A stretch of 54,828 nt of DNA from positions 1 to 54,828 of IMG/VR virus record IMGVR_UViG_3300030108_000328, one strand, 5' to 3'. How positions within the stretch are numbered: position 1 is the stretch's first letter; every line of letters begins with the position of its first letter. Shown here one piece after another: positions 83 through 46,067 of this stretch. Below the pieces are notes generated by a model, which searched no databases, had not been told where the DNA came from, and was given only the letters and a program-made list of their open reading frames with translations. A program made the position numbers and the translations under genes. The stretch is from a virus.

Positions 83-238
83 TATTAATTACCTTTAGTC
101 TACTAGAAGTTCGTAACTAACCAAGTATGTTAAATCACTGTTAGCAGAAGCTGTAACAGCGAGTAGATCTGTTTCGTCTAAATAAAATCCGTTGTCTTTA
201 CCTACAACAACTAGAGTTGCATCAGCAGGTACAGATAT
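1..238. repeat. Left copy of the imperfect terminal repeat
   Basis: Bases 1-238 match 54591-54828 in direct orientation with 8 substitutions (positions 8, 18, 23, 71, 75, 133, 149 and 173) and no indels. The repeat covers the 5' end of the Fn3/repeat tail gene, the gap after it, and most of the following 120-codon gene. This is what an assembler produces when it walks around a circular or terminally redundant molecule; the mismatches suggest microdiversity rather than one clonal template. Confidence 0.9.
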
Positions 239-457
239 TGTGTTAGCTATCTTAACATAGTTTGATCCGTTATCTACACTTACCTCAACGGTAATGTCAG
301 CAGCATTTGTACCATCTATGTTTGATATCATTAACGTGTTTATCTTTGCACAGTTTTCTGCAGGTACATCAACGATGTCTGCTCTACTTGTTGTCACTGC
401 ACCAACTGCTACCTTTGGAGTAATAGTCGCTACATTAATTATATTTGGGGTTGCCAT
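95..457 (-). CDS. Small putative virion protein, 120 aa
   Basis: A 120-residue protein with an N-terminal Ala/Thr/Val-rich stretch and alternating hydrophobic and Thr/Ser strands that predict an all-beta domain (for example ADITVEVSVDNGSNYVKIAN). There is no signal peptide or membrane segment. It lies between the long fibre gene and the Fn3 tail gene and starts 15 bases after the fibre stop, so it is probably a small tail or fibre accessory subunit. I do not recognise a family. Its 3' part occurs again at 54685-54828 because of the terminal repeat. Confidence 0.75.
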   Translation of the reverse strand: MATPNIINVATITPKVAVGAVTTSRADIVDVPAENCAKINTLMISNIDGTNAADITVEVSVDNGSNYVKIANTISVPADATLVVVGKDNGFYLDETDLLAVTASANSDLTYLVSYELLVD

Positions 458-16311: not shown

Positions 16312-16476
16312 TCAAAGGGCTTTACCTTTTAGTAGAACCCTTTCTATATCATGCCTACCAATACCTAAGTCTCGTAGTTCCCTGTCGGTCATTTGGTAAA
16401 GTTGCATACGTGCAATCTTACGTCTAGCTGACTCTGTTCTTGCTTCTATTATTTTGTTGAGTAATCTTTTAAACAT
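16312..16476 (-). CDS. DUF1127 (YjiS-like) microprotein, 54 aa
   Basis: Starts MFKRLLNKIIEARTESARRK, then ARMQLYQMTDRELRDLGI and GRHDIERVL, a textbook DUF1127 sequence: basic N-terminal helix plus the LxxMsDreLrDiGlsRxdI core. In Alphaproteobacteria small DUF1127 proteins have been linked to RNA turnover and to carbon and phosphate metabolism. ATG at 16476, TGA at 16312. The start follows GAGGATAGATA and a promoter-like sequence at 16533-16561. A phage copy of a host-type regulator suggests it alters host RNA or stress physiology; exact role unknown. Confidence 0.85.
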   Translation of the reverse strand: MFKRLLNKIIEARTESARRKIARMQLYQMTDRELRDLGIGRHDIERVLLKGKAL

Positions 16477-17302: not shown

Positions 17303-17737
17303 TTACTTACCTCTTCTGGACATACCACCATAAAACATTCCTGTTTTACGCATGTCATTCATCTTGCCACCCTTGGCGTAACCTTTTTTCTTAGGCATAC
17401 CACCCTTGTTTAGTTTTACGCCTCTGCCTTTTAATATATCTGCTTGGGTAACTTTACCGTCACCAGTCAAGTCTGGGAATTTTTTAGCCATACCGCCCTC
17501 ATTTGCTCTAAATTTTCTTGTTTTCTGTGCAATCTTTTTAGGTTGCTTAACAAACTGTTTGCCTTTTGCTTTGCCTTCTCTTTTAGCTTTTGTAGTTGCT
17601 GCATACTCAGCAGAAGACAAAGACTTTATGGCAGCTTCAGGCAAGTATCTTTCCCCAGTCTTAGCACTAGGCTTTCCACTCTTTGTACGCCACTTTTGTT
17701 TTGTCCAGTCTTTTAAACTTTTCTGAGGGGCTTTCAT
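17303..17737 (-). CDS. DUF5872-like basic protein with EF-hand-type loop, 144 aa
   Basis: The N-terminus (KSLKDWTKQKWRTKSGKPS, TGERYLPEAAIKSLSSAEY) is widespread in marine phages and cyanophages; I connect it with DUF5872 from memory. A 12-residue EF-hand/dockerin-like loop DLTGDGKVTQAD follows near residues 90-101, with Asp at positions 1, 5 and 12 of the loop. The C-terminus has the Gly/Lys-rich MPKKKGYAKGG motif also found in the 60-aa gene nearby. Abuts the next gene by one base. Probably nucleic-acid or virion associated; role unknown. Confidence 0.75.
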   Translation of the reverse strand: MKAPQKSLKDWTKQKWRTKSGKPSAKTGERYLPEAAIKSLSSAEYAATTKAKREGKAKGKQFVKQPKKIAQKTRKFRANEGGMAKKFPDLTGDGKVTQADILKGRGVKLNKGGMPKKKGYAKGGKMNDMRKTGMFYGGMSRRGK

Positions 17738-18027
17738 TATCTGTAACCCCCACCCTTAGCTTTGTATTGTTTTGCCAACATCTGTGCTTTTCTCGCAGAC
17801 CATTGTCCAGGTGAACCACCTTTTCCACCTGCTTTGATCCTGTTGAATAGGTTTTTACGCATAGTTGGTTTAGTGTAATTACCTGCTTTGTTGACTGTAC
17901 TACCACCACTAGACATCCCAACTGCTTTTTTTAAAGTCTTTGCTTGACCTGCATGAGTCTTCGAGGCTTTGCTTAAGCCTTTGATTACTTTCTTTACTTT
18001 ATTCTTATTTTGTTTAGATAAAGCCAT
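17737..18027 (-). CDS. Conserved basic marine-phage protein, 96 aa
   Basis: Strongly basic with a C-terminal block RKNLFNRIKAGGKGGSPGQW followed by SARKAQMLAKQYKAKGGG, which I know as one of the commonest unannotated marine phage segments. No catalytic residues or membrane helix. The pattern suggests a nucleic-acid- or membrane-binding small protein. Its ATG lies 5 bases from the neighbouring gene end and its end overlaps the next start by one base. Confidence 0.75.
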   Translation of the reverse strand: MALSKQNKNKVKKVIKGLSKASKTHAGQAKTLKKAVGMSSGGSTVNKAGNYTKPTMRKNLFNRIKAGGKGGSPGQWSARKAQMLAKQYKAKGGGYR

Positions 18028-18031
18028 GACA

Positions 18032-18214
18032 CTATATCTTTACTAATTTATAACCCATTTTTTTAGCGGCTGCTCGTAGTTTAGCAAGTGTCATTTTTGT
18101 AGCACCACCCTTAGAGTAGCCCTTCTTTTTCATGCCACCTTTTGCGTAACCTTTTTTCTTCATGCCACCACGAGCCATACCTTTTTTCTTCATCTTGTTT
18201 CCATGCATTGCCAT
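18032..18214 (-). CDS. Gly/Lys repeat protein, 60 aa
   Basis: Four tandem (M)KKKG(Y/M)(A/S)(K/R)GG units followed by a helix TLAKLRAAAKKMGYKLV. Such short, extremely basic repeat peptides occur widely in marine phages; possible roles are DNA condensation or RNA binding, none shown. Translation start MAMHGNK. Confidence 0.7.
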   Translation of the reverse strand: MAMHGNKMKKKGMARGGMKKKGYAKGGMKKKGYSKGGATKMTLAKLRAAAKKMGYKLVKI

Positions 18215-18216
18215 AG

Positions 18217-18894
18217 TTATTTTTCCTTATATAAATTGTTAAAGACACGTTCCGTATCCCAAATATATTCAACATCTTCTTTAGAGTTAAAGATGTTCTG
18301 ATTAGGTCTAAAGTCTGGTGCGCCTTGACCAGTTTCAAACCAAGCAGGGTGAGTTACTCTCACTCTATTATTGGGTAACGCAACCATGTTACCTGTGTAC
18401 TCTCCTGCATCTAACAACTCCAGAACGTGTGACTGTTTGTGTTGTGCAGGATCATCTGCTACTTCGTTGTCTGTGTAGTCAACAGTGAAGTAATACTTTG
18501 CAGGATAAAACTCTCCATCTACTTTGGCAATCCAAGGAGCAGGAGAAGCCCTTTCTATTTTATATACTGAGTGCGTATGAGACATACAATCCCAGGGTTG
18601 TGCTAAGTATGGTGGTAACTCTGTAGGCCATTCCTCAAGGGGGGTATCTGCCACGAGTGCTGTTAGAGGCATCCTTGCCCACATTGCACCACCATGTATG
18701 TTAGGGCTGTCATCTTCTTCATCAGACTCGCAGCCTGTAAAGATAACCTGGAAACTCAGTGTTCTGTTTGGCATAGTCGTTACTGCTACCACCATACAGT
18801 GCAGGAAGTCTCCATGATATTCCTGCATATTCTTTGTGTATTCTCTTCTTACCCAAGCTTTAAAATAGGGTATGTTACTTTGTAGATACGCCAT
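18217..18894 (-). CDS. Conserved hypothetical protein, 225 aa
   Basis: Starts MAYLQSNIPYFKAWVRREYT at 18894, the start used by the homologues I recall; the frame is open 16 codons further upstream, but that would deepen the overlap with the preceding gene (stop 18875). Mixed alpha/beta, aromatic-rich, containing WARMPLTALVADTPL, YLAQPWDCMSHTHSVY and YYFTVDYTDNE. Abundant in marine phages, function unknown. No signal peptide or membrane helix. The conserved WD-C-S-HTHS stretch could be a metal or active site, a guess. Confidence 0.8.
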   Translation of the reverse strand: MAYLQSNIPYFKAWVRREYTKNMQEYHGDFLHCMVVAVTTMPNRTLSFQVIFTGCESDEEDDSPNIHGGAMWARMPLTALVADTPLEEWPTELPPYLAQPWDCMSHTHSVYKIERASPAPWIAKVDGEFYPAKYYFTVDYTDNEVADDPAQHKQSHVLELLDAGEYTGNMVALPNNRVRVTHPAWFETGQGAPDFRPNQNIFNSKEDVEYIWDTERVFNNLYKEK

Positions 18895-19180
18895 CTTTTT
18901 TGTGTTTCCTTCGCAATTCTGCTTTAGCTTGTTTAAAGACATTTGCTATTGCTGTCTTGCCCATGACTTTAGCACGTTGCTCTGCTACGGTCAATATTTG
19001 GATCTTTCTTGCGTAAGGTTTCTTTAACTTTTTTACTTTGGCTACTGTGGCTTTAGCGTCAGCCATTGTAGCAAACTTGATAGATACTGTATCTTTTGGA
19101 TTCTCATCCGTATATAGTCTACGTCCAGACCCTTTTGGTTTTTTACCTGTTCCTACTTTTGGGTCTTTTTTCTTTTTCAT
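18875..19180 (-). CDS. Conserved basic marine-phage protein, 101 aa
   Basis: Contains GSGRRLYTDENPKDTVSIKF, then MADAKATVAKVKKLKKPYAR and KIQILTVAEQRAK, a highly conserved small protein of marine phages with no known function. Lys-rich at both ends, helical centre. Overlaps the next gene by 20 bases. Confidence 0.75.
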   Translation of the reverse strand: MKKKKDPKVGTGKKPKGSGRRLYTDENPKDTVSIKFATMADAKATVAKVKKLKKPYARKIQILTVAEQRAKVMGKTAIANVFKQAKAELRRKHKKDGVSTK

Positions 19181-19183
19181 TAG

Positions 19184-19279
19184 TTAAGCTTTGCAGTTAC
19201 AGTTAGGCCCACAATTTCTGTTTAAAATTGCACACACTATCCTTTTTAAATATCTCCATAACCATTTTACTATCTTCAT
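19184..19279 (-). CDS. Cys-rich microprotein, 31 aa
   Basis: Reads MKIVKWLWRYLKRIVCAILN then RNCGPNCNCKA: an amphipathic Trp/Arg/Lys helix followed by NCGPNCNC. Its ATG overlaps the preceding TGA as ATGA (19279-19276), so it is probably translated by coupling. Four cysteines in 31 residues suggest metal binding or disulphides; the amphipathic helix suggests membrane contact. No family is recognised. Confidence 0.6.
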   Translation of the reverse strand: MKIVKWLWRYLKRIVCAILNRNCGPNCNCKA

Positions 19280-19470
19280 AGTGAAACTCCCATTTTAATT
19301 TCTTGACACTCTGGTATAGCTAGGTATCCCTGTTGTTGAAAATATCTAGCTACAACCAAAGCTTCTTTAGCACATGCTTCCTCTGTAGGAAACGTTGACG
19401 TTGTTTTTATCATCACCTCACAAGATATTGACGCAGGTGTTGCACAGAGAAGCATAAAGGCTATCCACAT
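19276..19470 (-). CDS. Small secreted two-Cys protein, 64 aa
   Basis: N-terminal signal peptide MWIAFMLLCATPASIS, then FPTEEACAKEALVVARYF and a second Cys 22 residues later (IPECQEI). The FxTxExC...C arrangement also occurs in the proteins at 20548 and 30018, implying a small family of exported disulphide proteins. ATG overlaps the preceding stop (TAATG). Possible roles are periplasmic interference or superinfection exclusion; unproven. Confidence 0.65.
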   Translation of the reverse strand: MWIAFMLLCATPASISCEVMIKTTSTFPTEEACAKEALVVARYFQQQGYLAIPECQEIKMGVSL

Positions 19471-19856
19471 TAGAAACTAACTGTAGCTCCTATTGTTACG
19501 TCACCAAACTCTAGGTCTGAGTCTGTTGATACTTCAGTGTACAAGCTTATGTTTGTGCTAGGAACTGTGTAGTCAACAGTGAAGTCCAGTCCTTGAAAGA
19601 TGTCTCCATCCTCTAACTCTAACATGTCAATGTCTGTAGCCATTGTGAAACCTAGACCCATAGCTGAAAGACCTGCTGATGGTGTTAGCTCCCACTCCCA
19701 GTCTTCTACACCTGTTGTGTAGTTAAGATCTGAGGATGCTCCTATTGATACTGTTTGTCCTGCTACAGAAAAATCTTTTCCGTAAGACGCTGTGGTTGCC
19801 ATCATTGCAGCCAAGCCTACCCATGCTGCTATCACAGCTACTTCTATTTTACTCAT
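19470..19856 (-). CDS. Outer-membrane beta-barrel-like protein with signal peptide, 128 aa
   Basis: Signal peptide of about 26 residues (EVAVIAAWVGLAAMMATTAS), then alternating polar/hydrophobic strands (QTVSIGASSDLNYTTGV, LDFTVDYTVPST, TNISLYTEVSTD) and a C-terminal GDVTIGATVSF ending in Phe, the recognition feature of outer-membrane proteins. The mature part of about 100 residues would make a small barrel or part of one. A phage-encoded outer-membrane protein might block receptors or alter permeability. Also possible: a periplasmic beta protein. Function inferred only. Confidence 0.6.
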   Translation of the reverse strand: MSKIEVAVIAAWVGLAAMMATTASYGKDFSVAGQTVSIGASSDLNYTTGVEDWEWELTPSAGLSAMGLGFTMATDIDMLELEDGDIFQGLDFTVDYTVPSTNISLYTEVSTDSDLEFGDVTIGATVSF

Positions 19857-19873: not shown

Positions 19874-20170
19874 TTACCATTTAACTTTGTTAGCCCAATA
19901 CGCAGCAGACATTTTACCTTTTGCAATATTCTTGCTGTGTCTTGCTTTAAAACTTGCCCTCTTCTTTTTCATTCTATCCGATTCACCTGCTTTGGGTTTA
20001 CCTGCAGTAGAGGCTCCTTGCTGACCAAAGCGAATCAATTTATATTTGCCACCTTCTGATGCCATGACAACGTGAGACTTAGTTGGGTGATCAGGAGTCC
20101 TCTTTGGTTTGTTGACTCCTTTTAACCCTAGCCTTTTCATTGTCGCTTTGACACGCTCAGGTACGCTCAT
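19874..20170 (-). CDS. DUF6321-like small basic protein, 98 aa
   Basis: Contains KRTPDHPTKSHVVMASEGGK, YKLIRFGQQGASTAGKPKAG, SFKARHSKNIAKGK and AAYWANKVKW. I recall this set of motifs as a conserved domain (DUF6321-type) of marine phages. Highly basic, no membrane helix. Overlaps the lipoprotein gene by 4 bases (ATGA). Role unknown. Confidence 0.75.
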   Translation of the reverse strand: MSVPERVKATMKRLGLKGVNKPKRTPDHPTKSHVVMASEGGKYKLIRFGQQGASTAGKPKAGESDRMKKKRASFKARHSKNIAKGKMSAAYWANKVKW

Positions 20171-20547
20171 TTATATCTCTCGTATTTAGGGTTATCTTTC
20201 CTTCCAAATAGTGTCAGTATAAAGTTCATTATACCTCTACCAATTTCTGTAGGTGTTGGCAAGAGCCAACCTAAAATAAGGAGCAACATAACCCAGGGCG
20301 GTATGTTTGTGTTTATAATATCTAAGCTTCCCACTGCACCTGTCTCTACTTCTTTTATTATTTCAGTTTGTATAACATCTCTACCTGCAGACACTTCTTC
20401 GGTCTGCTCAACACTCATTACTGACTGTCGGTTTTCTTTACCTATCTGTGCGTTAGAATTTACTGTAGGACCGTCTGATCCTCCTAGCAACCCCAGAGTA
20501 CTCAAACCACAACCAGATAAAAATAGAACGAGTATTAACCATCGCAT
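20167..20547 (-). CDS. Lipoprotein with C-terminal membrane helix; unimolecular spanin candidate, 126 aa
   Basis: Lipobox LSGC with the lipidated Cys at residue 13 after a very short leader (MRWLILVLFLSG). A polar periplasmic stretch (residues 25-80) is followed by a hydrophobic segment about 82-98 (PPWVMLLLILGWLL), then a second hydrophobic helix and a basic tail. Outer-membrane lipid anchor plus C-terminal inner-membrane helix is the architecture of u-spanins such as T1 gp11 (similar length), which fuse the two membranes in the last step of lysis. It lies beside the endolysin. Alternative: an unrelated lipoprotein. Confidence 0.6.
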   Translation of the reverse strand: MRWLILVLFLSGCGLSTLGLLGGSDGPTVNSNAQIGKENRQSVMSVEQTEEVSAGRDVIQTEIIKEVETGAVGSLDIINTNIPPWVMLLLILGWLLPTPTEIGRGIMNFILTLFGRKDNPKYERYK

Positions 20548-20759: not shown

Positions 20760-21227
20760 CTACATCATCTCAAAATGTGGAGCATCTATAAAAGGTCTAC
20801 GTCCTTGAGATCTTCTTAGATCAACGTAAGCCATCATAGCTTCCTCTGAAGTTCCTGGATATGTTCTGATATCCCCTTCACTCCAGGCTGCTCCCCACTT
20901 GATAGCGCACTCGAACTCTTCTGCTGCTTCTTTAAAAGCGTCACAGATGTCATCGTATAAGTTCAACTCCCACGATACTTCTGGTCCTACGTAGGCTACA
21001 ACATCTACAGCCTGTGAATATCCATCCTCTTGAGGAAGGTGTTTGGATCGCATAGTTTGAGATCTTCCTGCAGCTACGTTAGCCTCTTGCTCTTCTATGG
21101 TTCTTACGCCACACGTCACTCCGAAGTCAACTTCGGTCAGTTCGATAGCTCTTTCAACAACTGAGACTAGATCAGGGTGTACGCCTATCAGTCTTTCTTG
21201 TGATCTTTTACTTAGGTTAAAACTCAT
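20760..21227 (-). CDS. Endolysin: peptidase M15 (L-Ala-D-Glu/VanY-type), 155 aa
   Basis: Zinc peptidase that cuts peptidoglycan cross-bridges at lysis. The zinc-binding pattern SxHLxxxDGYSQAVD gives His63 and Asp75; the third ligand is His151 in DAPHFE, with Asp148 as the likely catalytic acid. GVTCGVRTIEEQ matches the family. Between the WGAAW segment (about 111-115) and the DAPHFE end there is an insertion of about 25 residues. No signal peptide, so a holin is needed. Overlaps the next upstream gene by 4 bases. Confidence 0.85.
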   Translation of the reverse strand: MSFNLSKRSQERLIGVHPDLVSVVERAIELTEVDFGVTCGVRTIEEQEANVAAGRSQTMRSKHLPQEDGYSQAVDVVAYVGPEVSWELNLYDDICDAFKEAAEEFECAIKWGAAWSEGDIRTYPGTSEEAMMAYVDLRRSQGRRPFIDAPHFEMM

Positions 21228-21760
21228 GATCCTGGCCTTCTCTTTGGTCTAACTCTAGGAATAGGTTTCTTTGGTCTTGGTTTTGGCTTTGTAGCTTTTT
21301 TCTTAGGTGGACTAGCCACTGCTTTCTTTGCAGAATCTAAAGCTCTGTTTACAGGAGTACGTGCTTTGTTCCTACCTTTGTTACCAGTGCCTGTTTTTTG
21401 TTTTTTCTTAATCCCTGTTTTAATTCCTACTCTTACGTTGGGTTGAGCTTTCTTTCCTCCTGTATCTTTTGAGGCTGATAGTATACTCGTTACAAGGGTA
21501 GGCGTTAGAAGACCTGCTGCAAGACCACCTGCTCCAACCTTTGCTTCACCTGCAGCCATAGTCACACTTGATTTAATTGCACTAGATATCTTTTGTTCAC
21601 CTGCAGTCTTTGGTCCTTGAAGTAATTTTTTATACCTAACAGGGATGTTCATATTCTGAATCATCTTTTTAGTTACTTTAGCTAGAGGCACTCCTGCCTG
21701 TCTAGCTGCTGACTTTGCTAAAGCTAAAAGTGCTGCTGCTCCTAGTATTGGTGCTGCCAT
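21224..21760 (-). CDS. Basic Ala/Lys-rich protein, 178 aa
   Basis: N-terminus has a hydrophobic Ala-rich helix (APILGAAALLALAKSAARQ), then KVTKKMIQNMNIPVRYKKLL, and a long Lys/Arg/Pro-rich tail from about residue 100 (KKKATKPKPRPKKPIPRVRP). Possibly a membrane- or DNA-binding accessory of the lysis block. Overlaps both neighbours (4 bases and 1 base). Not recognised. Confidence 0.65.
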   Translation of the reverse strand: MAAPILGAAALLALAKSAARQAGVPLAKVTKKMIQNMNIPVRYKKLLQGPKTAGEQKISSAIKSSVTMAAGEAKVGAGGLAAGLLTPTLVTSILSASKDTGGKKAQPNVRVGIKTGIKKKQKTGTGNKGRNKARTPVNRALDSAKKAVASPPKKKATKPKPRPKKPIPRVRPKRRPGS

Positions 21761-22089
21761 TATCTCATATCCTTCTTCATAGCTATTTTGTTGCCCATTG
21801 GCTTCCCTGCCATGTATGCTGTCGCTCCCATGTAGGCTGCTACAACACCAGTCTGTGCAATGTAAAATAGCCCAAGCAAGTCTGCTAGGGCGTTAACTCT
21901 TGTGTCAGATAGTAAAGGAGTAAATAAAATAACTGTGAATACAATCATCATCCCCATTGCTACCCAGGCCATAAACTTTTGAGACTCAGCCTTTTCTTCT
22001 CGTAGCTCTACTTCGAGCATACGCTCTTTCATCGCTATCTCTTCTGCTGTGATCTTACCATCACCGTCTACGTCAAAGTCTATAACCAT
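21760..22089 (-). CDS. EF-hand plus two-TM protein; holin candidate, 109 aa
   Basis: N-terminal canonical EF-hand loop (Asp6, Asp8, Asp10, Lys12, Glu17 of DVDGDGKITAEE), a charged helix to residue 40, then two membrane helices (about 41-62, FMAWVAMGMMIVFTVILF, and 70-92, LGLFYIAQTGVVAAYMGA) and a basic end. Size, topology and position beside the endolysin fit a holin. The calcium loop on the cytoplasmic side is unusual and might link activity to Ca2+. Alternative: another small membrane protein conserved in marine phages. Confidence 0.65.
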   Translation of the reverse strand: MVIDFDVDGDGKITAEEIAMKERMLEVELREEKAESQKFMAWVAMGMMIVFTVILFTPLLSDTRVNALADLLGLFYIAQTGVVAAYMGATAYMAGKPMGNKIAMKKDMR

Positions 22090-22359
22090 CTAATCCCCCA
22101 CAACCTCTTTACTTCCACAGACACGTTCATACACCATGTCTCCAACGTAGGCTTCAGCCCACTTGTTCTCAGTGAAAGTGCAGAACTGCCATAAATCGTT
22201 TACGTCATCGTTCAACACGTTGATTATTTCTTGTTGTTCGTTGACTGTTTCCGTTAAGTGTTCAATATCGTGAACCATTTCACTGGCATACCAAACAACA
22301 CCTGCCAGTTGGACAGCCATTGCTACAACAAGAGCTATAGGTATTTTTAAAGTGTCCAT
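22090..22359 (-). CDS. Single-TM coiled-coil protein, 89 aa
   Basis: One N-terminal membrane helix (KIPIALVVAMAVQLAGVVWY) followed by a coiled coil (EHLTETVNEQQEIINVLNDD) and a C-terminal part with two Cys (QFCTF; ERVCG). Topology (N-in, periplasmic coiled coil) resembles i-spanins and antiholin-type proteins. Lies in the lysis cluster between the holin candidate and the 40-aa peptide. Function not proven. Confidence 0.65.
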   Translation of the reverse strand: MDTLKIPIALVVAMAVQLAGVVWYASEMVHDIEHLTETVNEQQEIINVLNDDVNDLWQFCTFTENKWAEAYVGDMVYERVCGSKEVVGD

Positions 22360-45296: not shown

Positions 45297-46067
45297 CTAG
45301 TAACCCTCGTTAAATAATTTAAGTTCTGCTGCTCTTCTTTTTATAAGACCATCACGAACTTTACCACCTGCGTACTTGTATTCTGGCAACATATCAGCAA
45401 TCTCTTCGTCACCTCTTGTGCCGTCCTCTGTTAACTTTCTTAAGTTACCTGCCCCTAAATTATAAGTAAAACTTGTAAGAGCATCCACTTGGTTTTCGTT
45501 CCAGTCATAACCTGCTGTTTCTTTTAGTTTTAAAACAGTTTTACGTGCAGCATCTAAATCTTTTTCTAGAAGTTTTCTAGCTTCTGTTTCAGTTATTGTT
45601 TGATCTTTACTACTAGCTTTTGTTCCATAACCTATAGATGTTTGTTTAAAATCATCGTAAGCAGTTGAACTAAACTTTTCATATTCCATCACAAACTCAA
45701 CTAAGTTAGAGGGTGTTTTAGAACCTTCTTTATTAGGTGAAAATGTGCTTTGCGTAGGCTTTATACCTAACTCTTGTTTTTTTTCTGATAACTCTGGTGC
45801 TTCATCTAAAGCAGCTATAGCTTCCATCCATCCACCTACTGTAGCAAGGAGATTATCAGAATCCTTTTCACTAGAACTTTTTTTAGAAACATTGTCATCT
45901 CTAGTCATACCCTCCCTGACAGTGTCAGCGTCTGGAACTGAAACTTTTTGAGCACCAAGACCTGACCCTGATTTAGCTTTGCCACCTGGTTGTGCAATAT
46001 TCAACTCAGGATTAAGCTGTTGACTTAAATTTCTTTTTGTTATTCTATCTTGTGCTCTACTTAACAT
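45297..46067 (-). CDS. Virion-associated lysozyme (GH24-type), 256 aa
   Basis: Residues 1-110 are a polar linker (Lys/Ser/Gly-rich). The C-terminal part is a T4-lysozyme-like domain: FVMEYEKFSSTAYDD, then TSIGYGTKAS, with Glu followed by the DD pair and a Ser/Thr in the expected GH24 order, then NQVDALTSFTYNLGAGNLRK and IKRRAAELKLF. The loop between Asp and the IGYG strand looks shorter than in T4. Placed among internal proteins, it most likely opens the cell wall during entry. Confidence 0.75.
   Translation of the reverse strand: MLSRAQDRITKRNLSQQLNPELNIAQPGGKAKSGSGLGAQKVSVPDADTVREGMTRDDNVSKKSSSEKDSDNLLATVGGWMEAIAALDEAPELSEKKQELGIKPTQSTFSPNKEGSKTPSNLVEFVMEYEKFSSTAYDDFKQTSIGYGTKASSKDQTITETEARKLLEKDLDAARKTVLKLKETAGYDWNENQVDALTSFTYNLGAGNLRKLTEDGTRGDEEIADMLPEYKYAGGKVRDGLIKRRAAELKLFNEGY

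What the first reader, a model, noticed from the sequence alone, without database searches (positions are those of the whole stretch)
19470..19856. Possible phage-encoded outer-membrane beta-barrel protein
Signal peptide, alternating strand pattern and C-terminal Phe are hallmarks of BAM substrates. At about 100 mature residues it is smaller than known 8-strand barrels. A phage protein put into the outer membrane could mask the receptor or exclude other phages.
Basis: inference. Interest (0 to 1): 0.55.

Follow-up and report, generated by a model that had tools for sequence, protein, structure and literature searches.

The report
Six-stranded outer-membrane-like phage protein family
A marine phage carries a small, probably exported protein, of a family that my searches found only in uncultured phages, which looks like half of an outer-membrane barrel and sits near the genes that burst the host cell; its function is untested.

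Summary
ORF 19470-19856 (-) encodes 128 aa: a signal-peptide-like leader, then about 101 mature residues with amphipathic strands and a C-terminal Phe.

It belongs to a family I found only in IMG/VR phage contigs. tblastn of cultured phages and pattern scans of GTDB genomes found no member.

The mature part is under purifying selection (median dN/dS 0.085 against the window copy). The leader has been replaced: pairs with 97-98% identical mature DNA have leaders 46-52% alike, shuffled leaders 41-44%. All 73 distinct mature sequences end in Phe with Gly at -6; 70 fit the BAM beta-signal.

AlphaFold on the mature domain with 73 sequences gives pLDDT 90 and six strands. By title, 35 of 50 listed structural matches are membrane barrels, but every Z is below 8.

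In 33 of 43 testable relatives an endolysin or spanin-like gene lies close upstream. [quoted passage not shown] Closest known kind: Pfam Phage_OMP of cyanophages; sequence tests do not support membership.

Outer-membrane location is likely. A dimeric pore, a lysis role or phage exclusion are hypotheses that nothing here separates.

The parts
19470..19856 (-). Six-stranded outer-membrane-like protein, 128 aa
   Evidence: relatives; median dN/dS 0.085 on the mature part
19779..19856 (-). Signal-peptide-like leader, residues 1-26 (MSKIEVAVIAAWVGLAAMMATTASYG); exact cleavage site inferred
   Evidence: leader exchanged between relatives with near-identical mature domains; no SignalP available
19716..19757 (-). 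beta strand 1 (residues 34-47)
   Evidence: AlphaFold2
19662..19703 (-). beta strand 2 (residues 52-65)
   Evidence: AlphaFold2
19626..19655 (-). beta strand 3 (residues 68-77)
   Evidence: AlphaFold2
19566..19598 (-). beta strand 4 (residues 87-97)
   Evidence: AlphaFold2
19524..19550 (-). beta strand 5 (residues 103-111)
   Evidence: AlphaFold2
19479..19508 (-). beta strand 6 (residues 117-126)
   Evidence: AlphaFold2
19473..19496 (-). beta-signal TIGATVSF at the C-terminus
   Evidence: 70 of 73 distinct mature sequences fit the motif; Gly(-6) and Phe(-1) in 73 of 73
19276..19470 (-). 64-aa Cys-containing protein with a hydrophobic N-terminus; its start overlaps the barrel gene's stop (TAATG)
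   Evidence: homologue within 400 nt downstream in 67 of 82 distinct relatives with 600 nt of flank
19874..20170 (-). 98-aa basic protein (called DUF5872-like from recall), 17 nt upstream of the barrel gene
   Evidence: phrog_7595 E 4.5e-42, unknown function; homologue within 400 nt upstream in 56 of 76
20167..20547 (-). lipobox (LSGC) plus C-terminal membrane segment: candidate unimolecular spanin
   Evidence: phrog_1804 Rz-like spanin E 5.3e-05, phrog_30566 (unknown function) E 6.7e-23; topology read from the sequence
20760..21227 (-). endolysin
   Evidence: phrog_465 endolysin E 5.4e-53
21760..22089 (-). membrane protein, possible holin
   Evidence: phrog_27150, unknown function, E 8e-12; Phage_holin_3_6 E 0.02, below cut-off; EF-hand models also below cut-off
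22090..22359 (-). membrane segment plus coiled coil (by eye), possibly Rz-like
   Evidence: phrog_8909, unknown function, E 1.7e-06; Rz-like spanins phrog_214 E 0.0065 and phrog_739 E 0.0087, weak

Best explanation
The gene encodes a Sec-exported protein that the host BAM machinery inserts into the outer membrane. Each chain gives six antiparallel strands with one hydrophobic face and one strongly acidic polar face (19 Asp/Glu and no Lys/Arg in the 101 residues from Asp28). Six strands are too few for the known single-chain barrels, so the most likely form is a homo-oligomer, for example two chains making a 12-strand acid-lined barrel. It is made from the late operon with the lysis genes and acts on the outer membrane of the infected cell near the end of infection: loosening or permeabilising it for lysis, or changing the surface so that receptors no longer capture phage. 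Shown by computation: the conserved ORF, exchangeable leader, beta-signal, six-strand model and gene neighbourhood. Inferred: export, membrane insertion, oligomer, late expression and both roles.
For: Leader replaced while the mature DNA stays: L201/L220 mature DNA 98% (same protein) vs leader 52%; L013/L035 97% vs 46%; shuffled leaders of these two pairs give 44% and 41%. Median dN/dS 0.085, each relative against the window copy, 66 of 78 same-length members kept. Phe 73 of 73, Gly(-6) 73 of 73, beta-signal 70 of 73; 19 acidic and 0 basic residues. Alternation above shuffles. AlphaFold pLDDT 90.2, pTM 0.72, six strands. VIA-align: by my reading of titles 35 of the 50 rows listed are membrane beta-barrels (designed TMB10 Z 7.8, rmsd 2.6 over 89 residues; VhGalP Z 7.4, rmsd 2.4 over 90; OmpU, FadL, OmpG, FapF); several alignments run to the end of the chain, e.g. 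8xua 108..210 of 210, 1t1l 282..421 of 421, 3nsg 218..341 of 341. Foldseek's first six PDB rows are OMPLA, E 0.28-0.52. Sub-threshold family matches of the 15 members scanned are led by barrels in Pfam and NCBIfam: autotransporter barrel E 0.013 (2 members), OmpG porin 0.024 (1), Omp33-36 0.042 (2). Of 43 distinct relatives with 2.5 kb upstream, 33 have an endolysin or spanin-like homologue there on the same strand.
Against: All Z values are below 8, which the tool warns may be a common arrangement; no Foldseek match has E <= 0.001 in PDB or BFVD. 15 of the 50 VIA rows are soluble proteins by title, and seven porin rows (9a2y, 6rd3, 7q3t, 2xe5, 6v78, 5o77, 2j4u) align to N-terminal rather than C-terminal strands. 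PHROG matches of the 15 members show no barrel label (best E 0.16-0.33, unknown function or holin). The leaders of the compared pairs are slightly more alike than shuffles. The first AlphaFold job (full length, 24 sequences) failed, pLDDT 45.5, and the five models of the second range from 66.6 to 90.2. The family is narrow (Neff 1.7). No expression, localisation or lysis data exist. 10 of 43 relatives with enough flank show neither endolysin nor spanin homologue upstream; in 9 of 82 the basic partner gene lies downstream.
Confidence: 0.55

Rival explanations
1. Superinfection exclusion or receptor masking: the protein sits in the outer membrane and blocks adsorption of other phages, or keeps receptor-bearing debris from capturing released progeny. 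It acts by binding the receptor, not by making a pore.
For: Phage-encoded envelope proteins with this role are known (T5 Llp, N15 Cor; recalled). A marine methylophage paper proposes phage S-layer proteins for the same purpose (PMC9004378, passages). The gene is accessory: absent from CRP-9 and CRP-13 and shifted in order in some relatives.
Against: It lies among lysis and packaging genes, which suggests late expression (inferred), whereas Llp acts early (recalled). Strong overall conservation (median dN/dS 0.085) is not what a fast-changing receptor match would give, but variation was not tested site by site.
Confidence: 0.3
2. A soluble periplasmic or secreted beta protein: the six-strand sheet pairs face to face or forms a lipocalin-like shell and never inserts in the membrane.
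For: One hydrophobic face also fits a soluble sandwich; 15 of 50 VIA rows are soluble proteins, such as DUF3836 (Z 7.4) and VtrA/VtrC (Z 6.8).
Against: Invariant C-terminal Phe with the beta-signal; 35 of 50 VIA rows are membrane barrels; the lowest-E Pfam and NCBIfam matches, all sub-threshold, are barrels.
Confidence: 0.17
3. A virion component (head decoration or minor protein) that only looks exported.
For: Its neighbours include small basic proteins of unknown role; the upstream gene weakly matches a minor head/DNA pilot profile (phrog_220 E 0.00025).
Against: A conserved but exchangeable export-like leader has no obvious role in cytoplasmic virion assembly; lysis genes close upstream in 33 of 43.
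Confidence: 0.06
4. A distant true member of the cyanophage Phage_OMP family (PF24653) that has diverged beyond sequence detection (can hold together with the best explanation).
For: Same size, leader, six-segment strand pattern by eye and terminal Phe; the last 43 columns align ending at the shared Phe; cyanophage proteins rank 4th and 8th of 560 BFVD matches.
Against: No hmmscan match of P0001 at E 10 or of 15 family members at E 5; hhalign P 0.12, no better than the reversed-profile control (score 13.22 vs 13.32; 60 column shuffles mean 10.8, max 17.0).
Confidence: 0.3

Closest known systems
Pfam PF24653 Phage_OMP, cyanophage outer membrane protein like beta barrel domain (P-SSM4_188, gp222 homologues)
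   Same: Marine phages; leader plus about 100 mature residues; six apparent strands by eye; C-terminal Phe in 12 of the 13 members aligned here. No function found in my searches.
   Different: No significant sequence similarity; cyanobacterial hosts where a host is given; neighbours named in the 12 stretches fetched plus P-SSM4 include psbA, glutaredoxin, hli, hsp and structural genes, none labelled as lysis (one stretch has no annotation and most reach only 300 nt); more basic residues (2-14 vs 0-6).
Lambda Lom / Ail-OmpX family (8-strand barrels; recalled)
   Same: A phage-encoded small outer-membrane barrel protein.
   Different: Eight strands and longer (recalled); no Pfam match to it here.
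Phage-encoded CsgGF outer-membrane pore of the marine methylophage Melnitz (PMC9004378)
   Same: A marine phage protein for which the authors discuss an outer-membrane pore and a role in lysis (passages read).
   Different: A multimeric CsgG-type pore of other size and fold; no relation tested.
[quoted passage not shown]
   Same: Nearest cultured phages by DNA: 77.4% and 75.3% identity over 28% and 22% of the 18-kb query; CRP-9 has the same order endolysin / spanin-like / basic protein / 61-aa protein.
   Different: Both lack the barrel gene: CRP-9 passes straight from the basic protein to the 61-aa protein; CRP-13 has a different 106-aa protein between them.

Membership tests
PF24653 Phage_OMP | Match to the Pfam profile (cut-off 27 bits) | tested here: not met
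   P0001 no match at E 10; 15 members no match at E 5; control P-SSM4_188 scores 136.3 bits
PF24653 Phage_OMP | Profile-profile similarity over the domain | tested here: inconclusive
   hhalign 43 columns, P 0.12, not above controls
PF24653 Phage_OMP | Similar fold | tested here: inconclusive
   BFVD rank 4 (Q58LB0, P-SSM4, prob 0.94, TMq 0.43) and rank 8 (Q6SL64, prob 0.98, TMq 0.51) of 560; E 0.099 and 0.18. That Q58LB0 is P-SSM4_188 is inferred from name and length
BAM-inserted outer-membrane beta-barrel proteins | N-terminal Sec signal peptide | tested here: inconclusive
   No SignalP; several very different leaders exchanged on the same mature domain support it
BAM-inserted outer-membrane beta-barrel proteins | C-terminal beta-signal ending in an aromatic residue | tested here: met
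   70 of 73 fit the full motif; Phe last in 73 of 73; motif definition recalled
BAM-inserted outer-membrane beta-barrel proteins | Antiparallel amphipathic strands forming a closed barrel of eight or more strands | tested here: inconclusive
   Six amphipathic strands predicted; closure, alone or by oligomerisation, not testable without coordinates or a multimer prediction
BAM-inserted outer-membrane beta-barrel proteins | Located in the outer membrane | not testable with these tools
   Needs fractionation
Phage lysis proteins acting on the outer membrane (spanins, disruptins) | Gene placed with lysis genes | tested here: met
   33 of 43 with endolysin or spanin-like homologue within 2.5 kb upstream, same strand; holin-like homologue in 18 of 43
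Phage lysis proteins acting on the outer membrane (spanins, disruptins) | Required for, or causes, outer-membrane disruption | not testable with these tools
   Needs expression or deletion
Ail/Lom 8-strand family | Sequence match to the family profile | tested here: not met
   No Pfam match of any kind for P0001 at E 10; none to it for 15 members at E 5. That Pfam holds this family is recalled

The most novel reading that the evidence does not exclude
A natural family of outer-membrane proteins with only six strands per chain, which must pair into a 12-strand acid-lined barrel, or close as the first known six-strand barrel, and which phages use as an outer-membrane pore in their lysis cassette.
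Probability: 0.2. Interest if true: 0.75.

Novelty: new variant of a known kind. Interest (0 to 1): 0.5.

Why it matters
Small phage-encoded outer-membrane-like proteins are common in cyanophages (PF24653; 462 records), and my searches found no role for them. A second, sequence-distinct family in phages related to Roseobacter phages, mostly close to lysis genes, gives a context clue and a testable system. If each chain really has six strands, the family tests the lower size limit of outer-membrane barrels and whether BAM can insert half-barrels that pair. Repeated exchange of signal peptides on a conserved mature domain is a pattern worth study in itself.

Tried and rejected
Pfam, PHROGs and NCBIfam on P0001: nothing significant (only phrog_25728 at E 0.24). 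PDB sequence search with A1 and A3: 0 matches at E 10. Genome-contig scans: 30 and 9 pattern matches, none confirmed; these scans need exact short patterns, so distant cellular homologues are not excluded. tblastn of phages with P0001 and L078: none; with L187: 7 matches at E 5-10 taken as chance. First AlphaFold job: pLDDT 45.5, discarded. No eight-strand barrel such as OmpA or OmpX is named among the 50 VIA rows shown, which excludes nothing. Promoter and terminator scans: at shuffle level. Leaders of this family on other proteins: none at 50% identity or more among open frames of 40 aa or more in the 235 loci held when that file was made. My first wording called exchanged leaders unrelated; a control shows them slightly above shuffled leaders (52% vs 44%, 46% vs 41%, 52% vs 41%, 59% vs 47%), so they are described as very different. 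Literature: 8 searches, 3 papers opened for passages only. 'Phage_OMP', 'PF24653' and 'DUF680 domain-containing' gave 2 papers, both for the DUF680 phrase only and not opened; 'cyanophage' with 'outer membrane protein-like' gave 0. No listing named this family, but no search could use its sequence.

Rows dropped: L069 (ambiguous bases) from A4; fragments such as L057, L071, L079, L081 that lack the mature start; 12 of 78 comparisons from the dN/dS median (dS 2 or more, or undefined). The first A1 alignment used 24 sequences chosen by me; A4 used all 73 distinct mature sequences then held. The search for related loci kept at most 80 loci per call, so the 140, 116 and 111 relatives were not all fetched. 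The 84 distinct genes are unique barrel DNA sequences (the window's own not among them); near-identical contigs remain, so counts are not independent. Leader types were assigned by my own text patterns.

Full report
What is there. The ORF at 19470-19856 on the minus strand encodes 128 aa. The window is a virus record of 54,828 bases. [quoted passage not shown] typical of alphaproteobacteria, recalled), so a Rhodobacteraceae host is likely (inference). PMC8528129 (passages only) describes CRP-9 and CRP-13; the phrase 'outer membrane' does not occur in its main text.

Family. Scans of viral contigs confirmed 79 loci with P0001, 140 with A1 (80 kept), 35 with L078, 116 with A2 and 111 with A3 (80 kept each), largely overlapping; mature identity to the window goes down to 54%. 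No member was found in cultured phages by tblastn with P0001, L078 or L187 or in GTDB genomes by pattern scan. CRP-9 goes directly from the basic upstream protein to the 61-aa downstream protein.

Signal peptide. Among 80 distinct leader/mature combinations my text patterns gave five leader types (25, 22, 16, 9 and 7, and 1 unassigned). Pairs with almost the same mature DNA carry very different leaders: L201/L220 98% vs 52%, L013/L035 97% vs 46%, against 44% and 41% for shuffled leaders. What is conserved is the layout: a short start often with Lys, a hydrophobic core and small residues before the mature start; several leaders end in AVA, TSA or ATA. This is good but indirect evidence of export; SignalP was not available.

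Mature domain. Median dN/dS is 0.085, each relative against the window (66 of 78 kept). Alternation of hydrophobicity exceeds shuffles. It has 19 acidic and no basic residues in 101; family range 17-20 acidic, 0-6 basic. The C-terminus matches the BAM beta-signal in 70 of 73.

Structure. A first prediction with the leader and 24 sequences failed (pLDDT 45.5). The mature domain with 73 sequences gave pLDDT 90.2 and pTM 0.72 (five models 66.6 to 90.2), with strands at mature residues 7-20, 25-38, 41-50, 60-70, 76-84 and 90-99. VIA-align of 995 chains gave a best Z of 7.8; by title, 35 of the 50 rows shown are membrane beta-barrels and 15 are soluble. Several barrel rows end at the chain end; seven porin rows lie at N-terminal strands instead. 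A fit of 2.4-2.6 A over about 90 residues to a designed 10-strand barrel and a porin suggests an open, curved sheet rather than a closed six-strand tube; this is inference, since coordinates were not given. The tool warns that Z below 8 may be a common arrangement, and Foldseek gave no match at E <= 0.001.

Neighbourhood. On the minus strand, in order of transcription: Rz-like, holin-like, a basic 178-aa protein, endolysin, a 69-aa protein, spanin-like lipoprotein, basic 98-aa protein, the barrel, 64-aa protein (the first two labels are weak). Across 84 distinct relatives, counting only those with enough flank: the basic protein within 400 nt upstream in 56 of 76 and within 800 nt downstream in 9 of 82; the 64-aa homologue within 400 nt downstream in 67 of 82; endolysin in 32, spanin-like in 32 and either in 33 of 43 within 2.5 kb upstream; holin-like in 18 of 43; TerS downstream in 54 of 66.

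Comparison with the known. Foldseek against viral models listed cyanophage proteins at ranks 4 and 8, leading to Pfam PF24653 Phage_OMP, which P-SSM4_188 matches at 136 bits and whose relatives occur in 462 phage records. The 13 members aligned have about 100 mature residues and by eye six strand segments; 12 end in Phe. Sequence tests do not link the families. So this resembles Phage_OMP in design, but membership is not shown.

Mechanism. The best-supported claim is an outer-membrane protein. The place near lysis genes favours action late in infection; an acid-lined oligomeric pore is a reasonable but untested form. A marine methylophage paper makes related proposals for other proteins, a CsgGF pore in lysis and an S-layer protein in exclusion (PMC9004378, passages); spanin classes are summarised in PMC9636201 (passages).

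Noticed in passing
window 20167-20547 (-): 126-aa protein with an N-terminal lipobox (LSGC) and a C-terminal membrane segment, the layout of a unimolecular spanin; weak match to Rz-like spanins (phrog_1804 E 5.3e-05).
   Followed up: partly
window 16312-16476 (-): A phage-encoded DUF1127 protein (PF06568, 31.8 bits, above cut-off), a small domain typical of alphaproteobacteria (recalled).
   Followed up: partly
window 17303-18214 (-): Small Lys/Gly-rich basic proteins with repeated KKKGYAKGGM-type motifs; the two scanned, 17306-17737 and 18035-18214, have no Pfam match at E 0.01.
   Followed up: no
window 45297-46067 (-): A second lysozyme domain (Phage_lysozyme, 85 bits), far from the endolysin at 20760-21227; perhaps virion-associated.
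   Followed up: no
window 18217-18942 (-): 241-aa protein matching phrog_3704, labelled ferredoxin (E 7.6e-28), among late genes; no Pfam match at E 0.1, so the label is doubtful.
   Followed up: no
L201:245-613 and L220:1554-1958: Members with identical mature proteins and 98% identical mature DNA but very different signal peptides, suggesting recombination at the leader/mature junction.
   Followed up: partly
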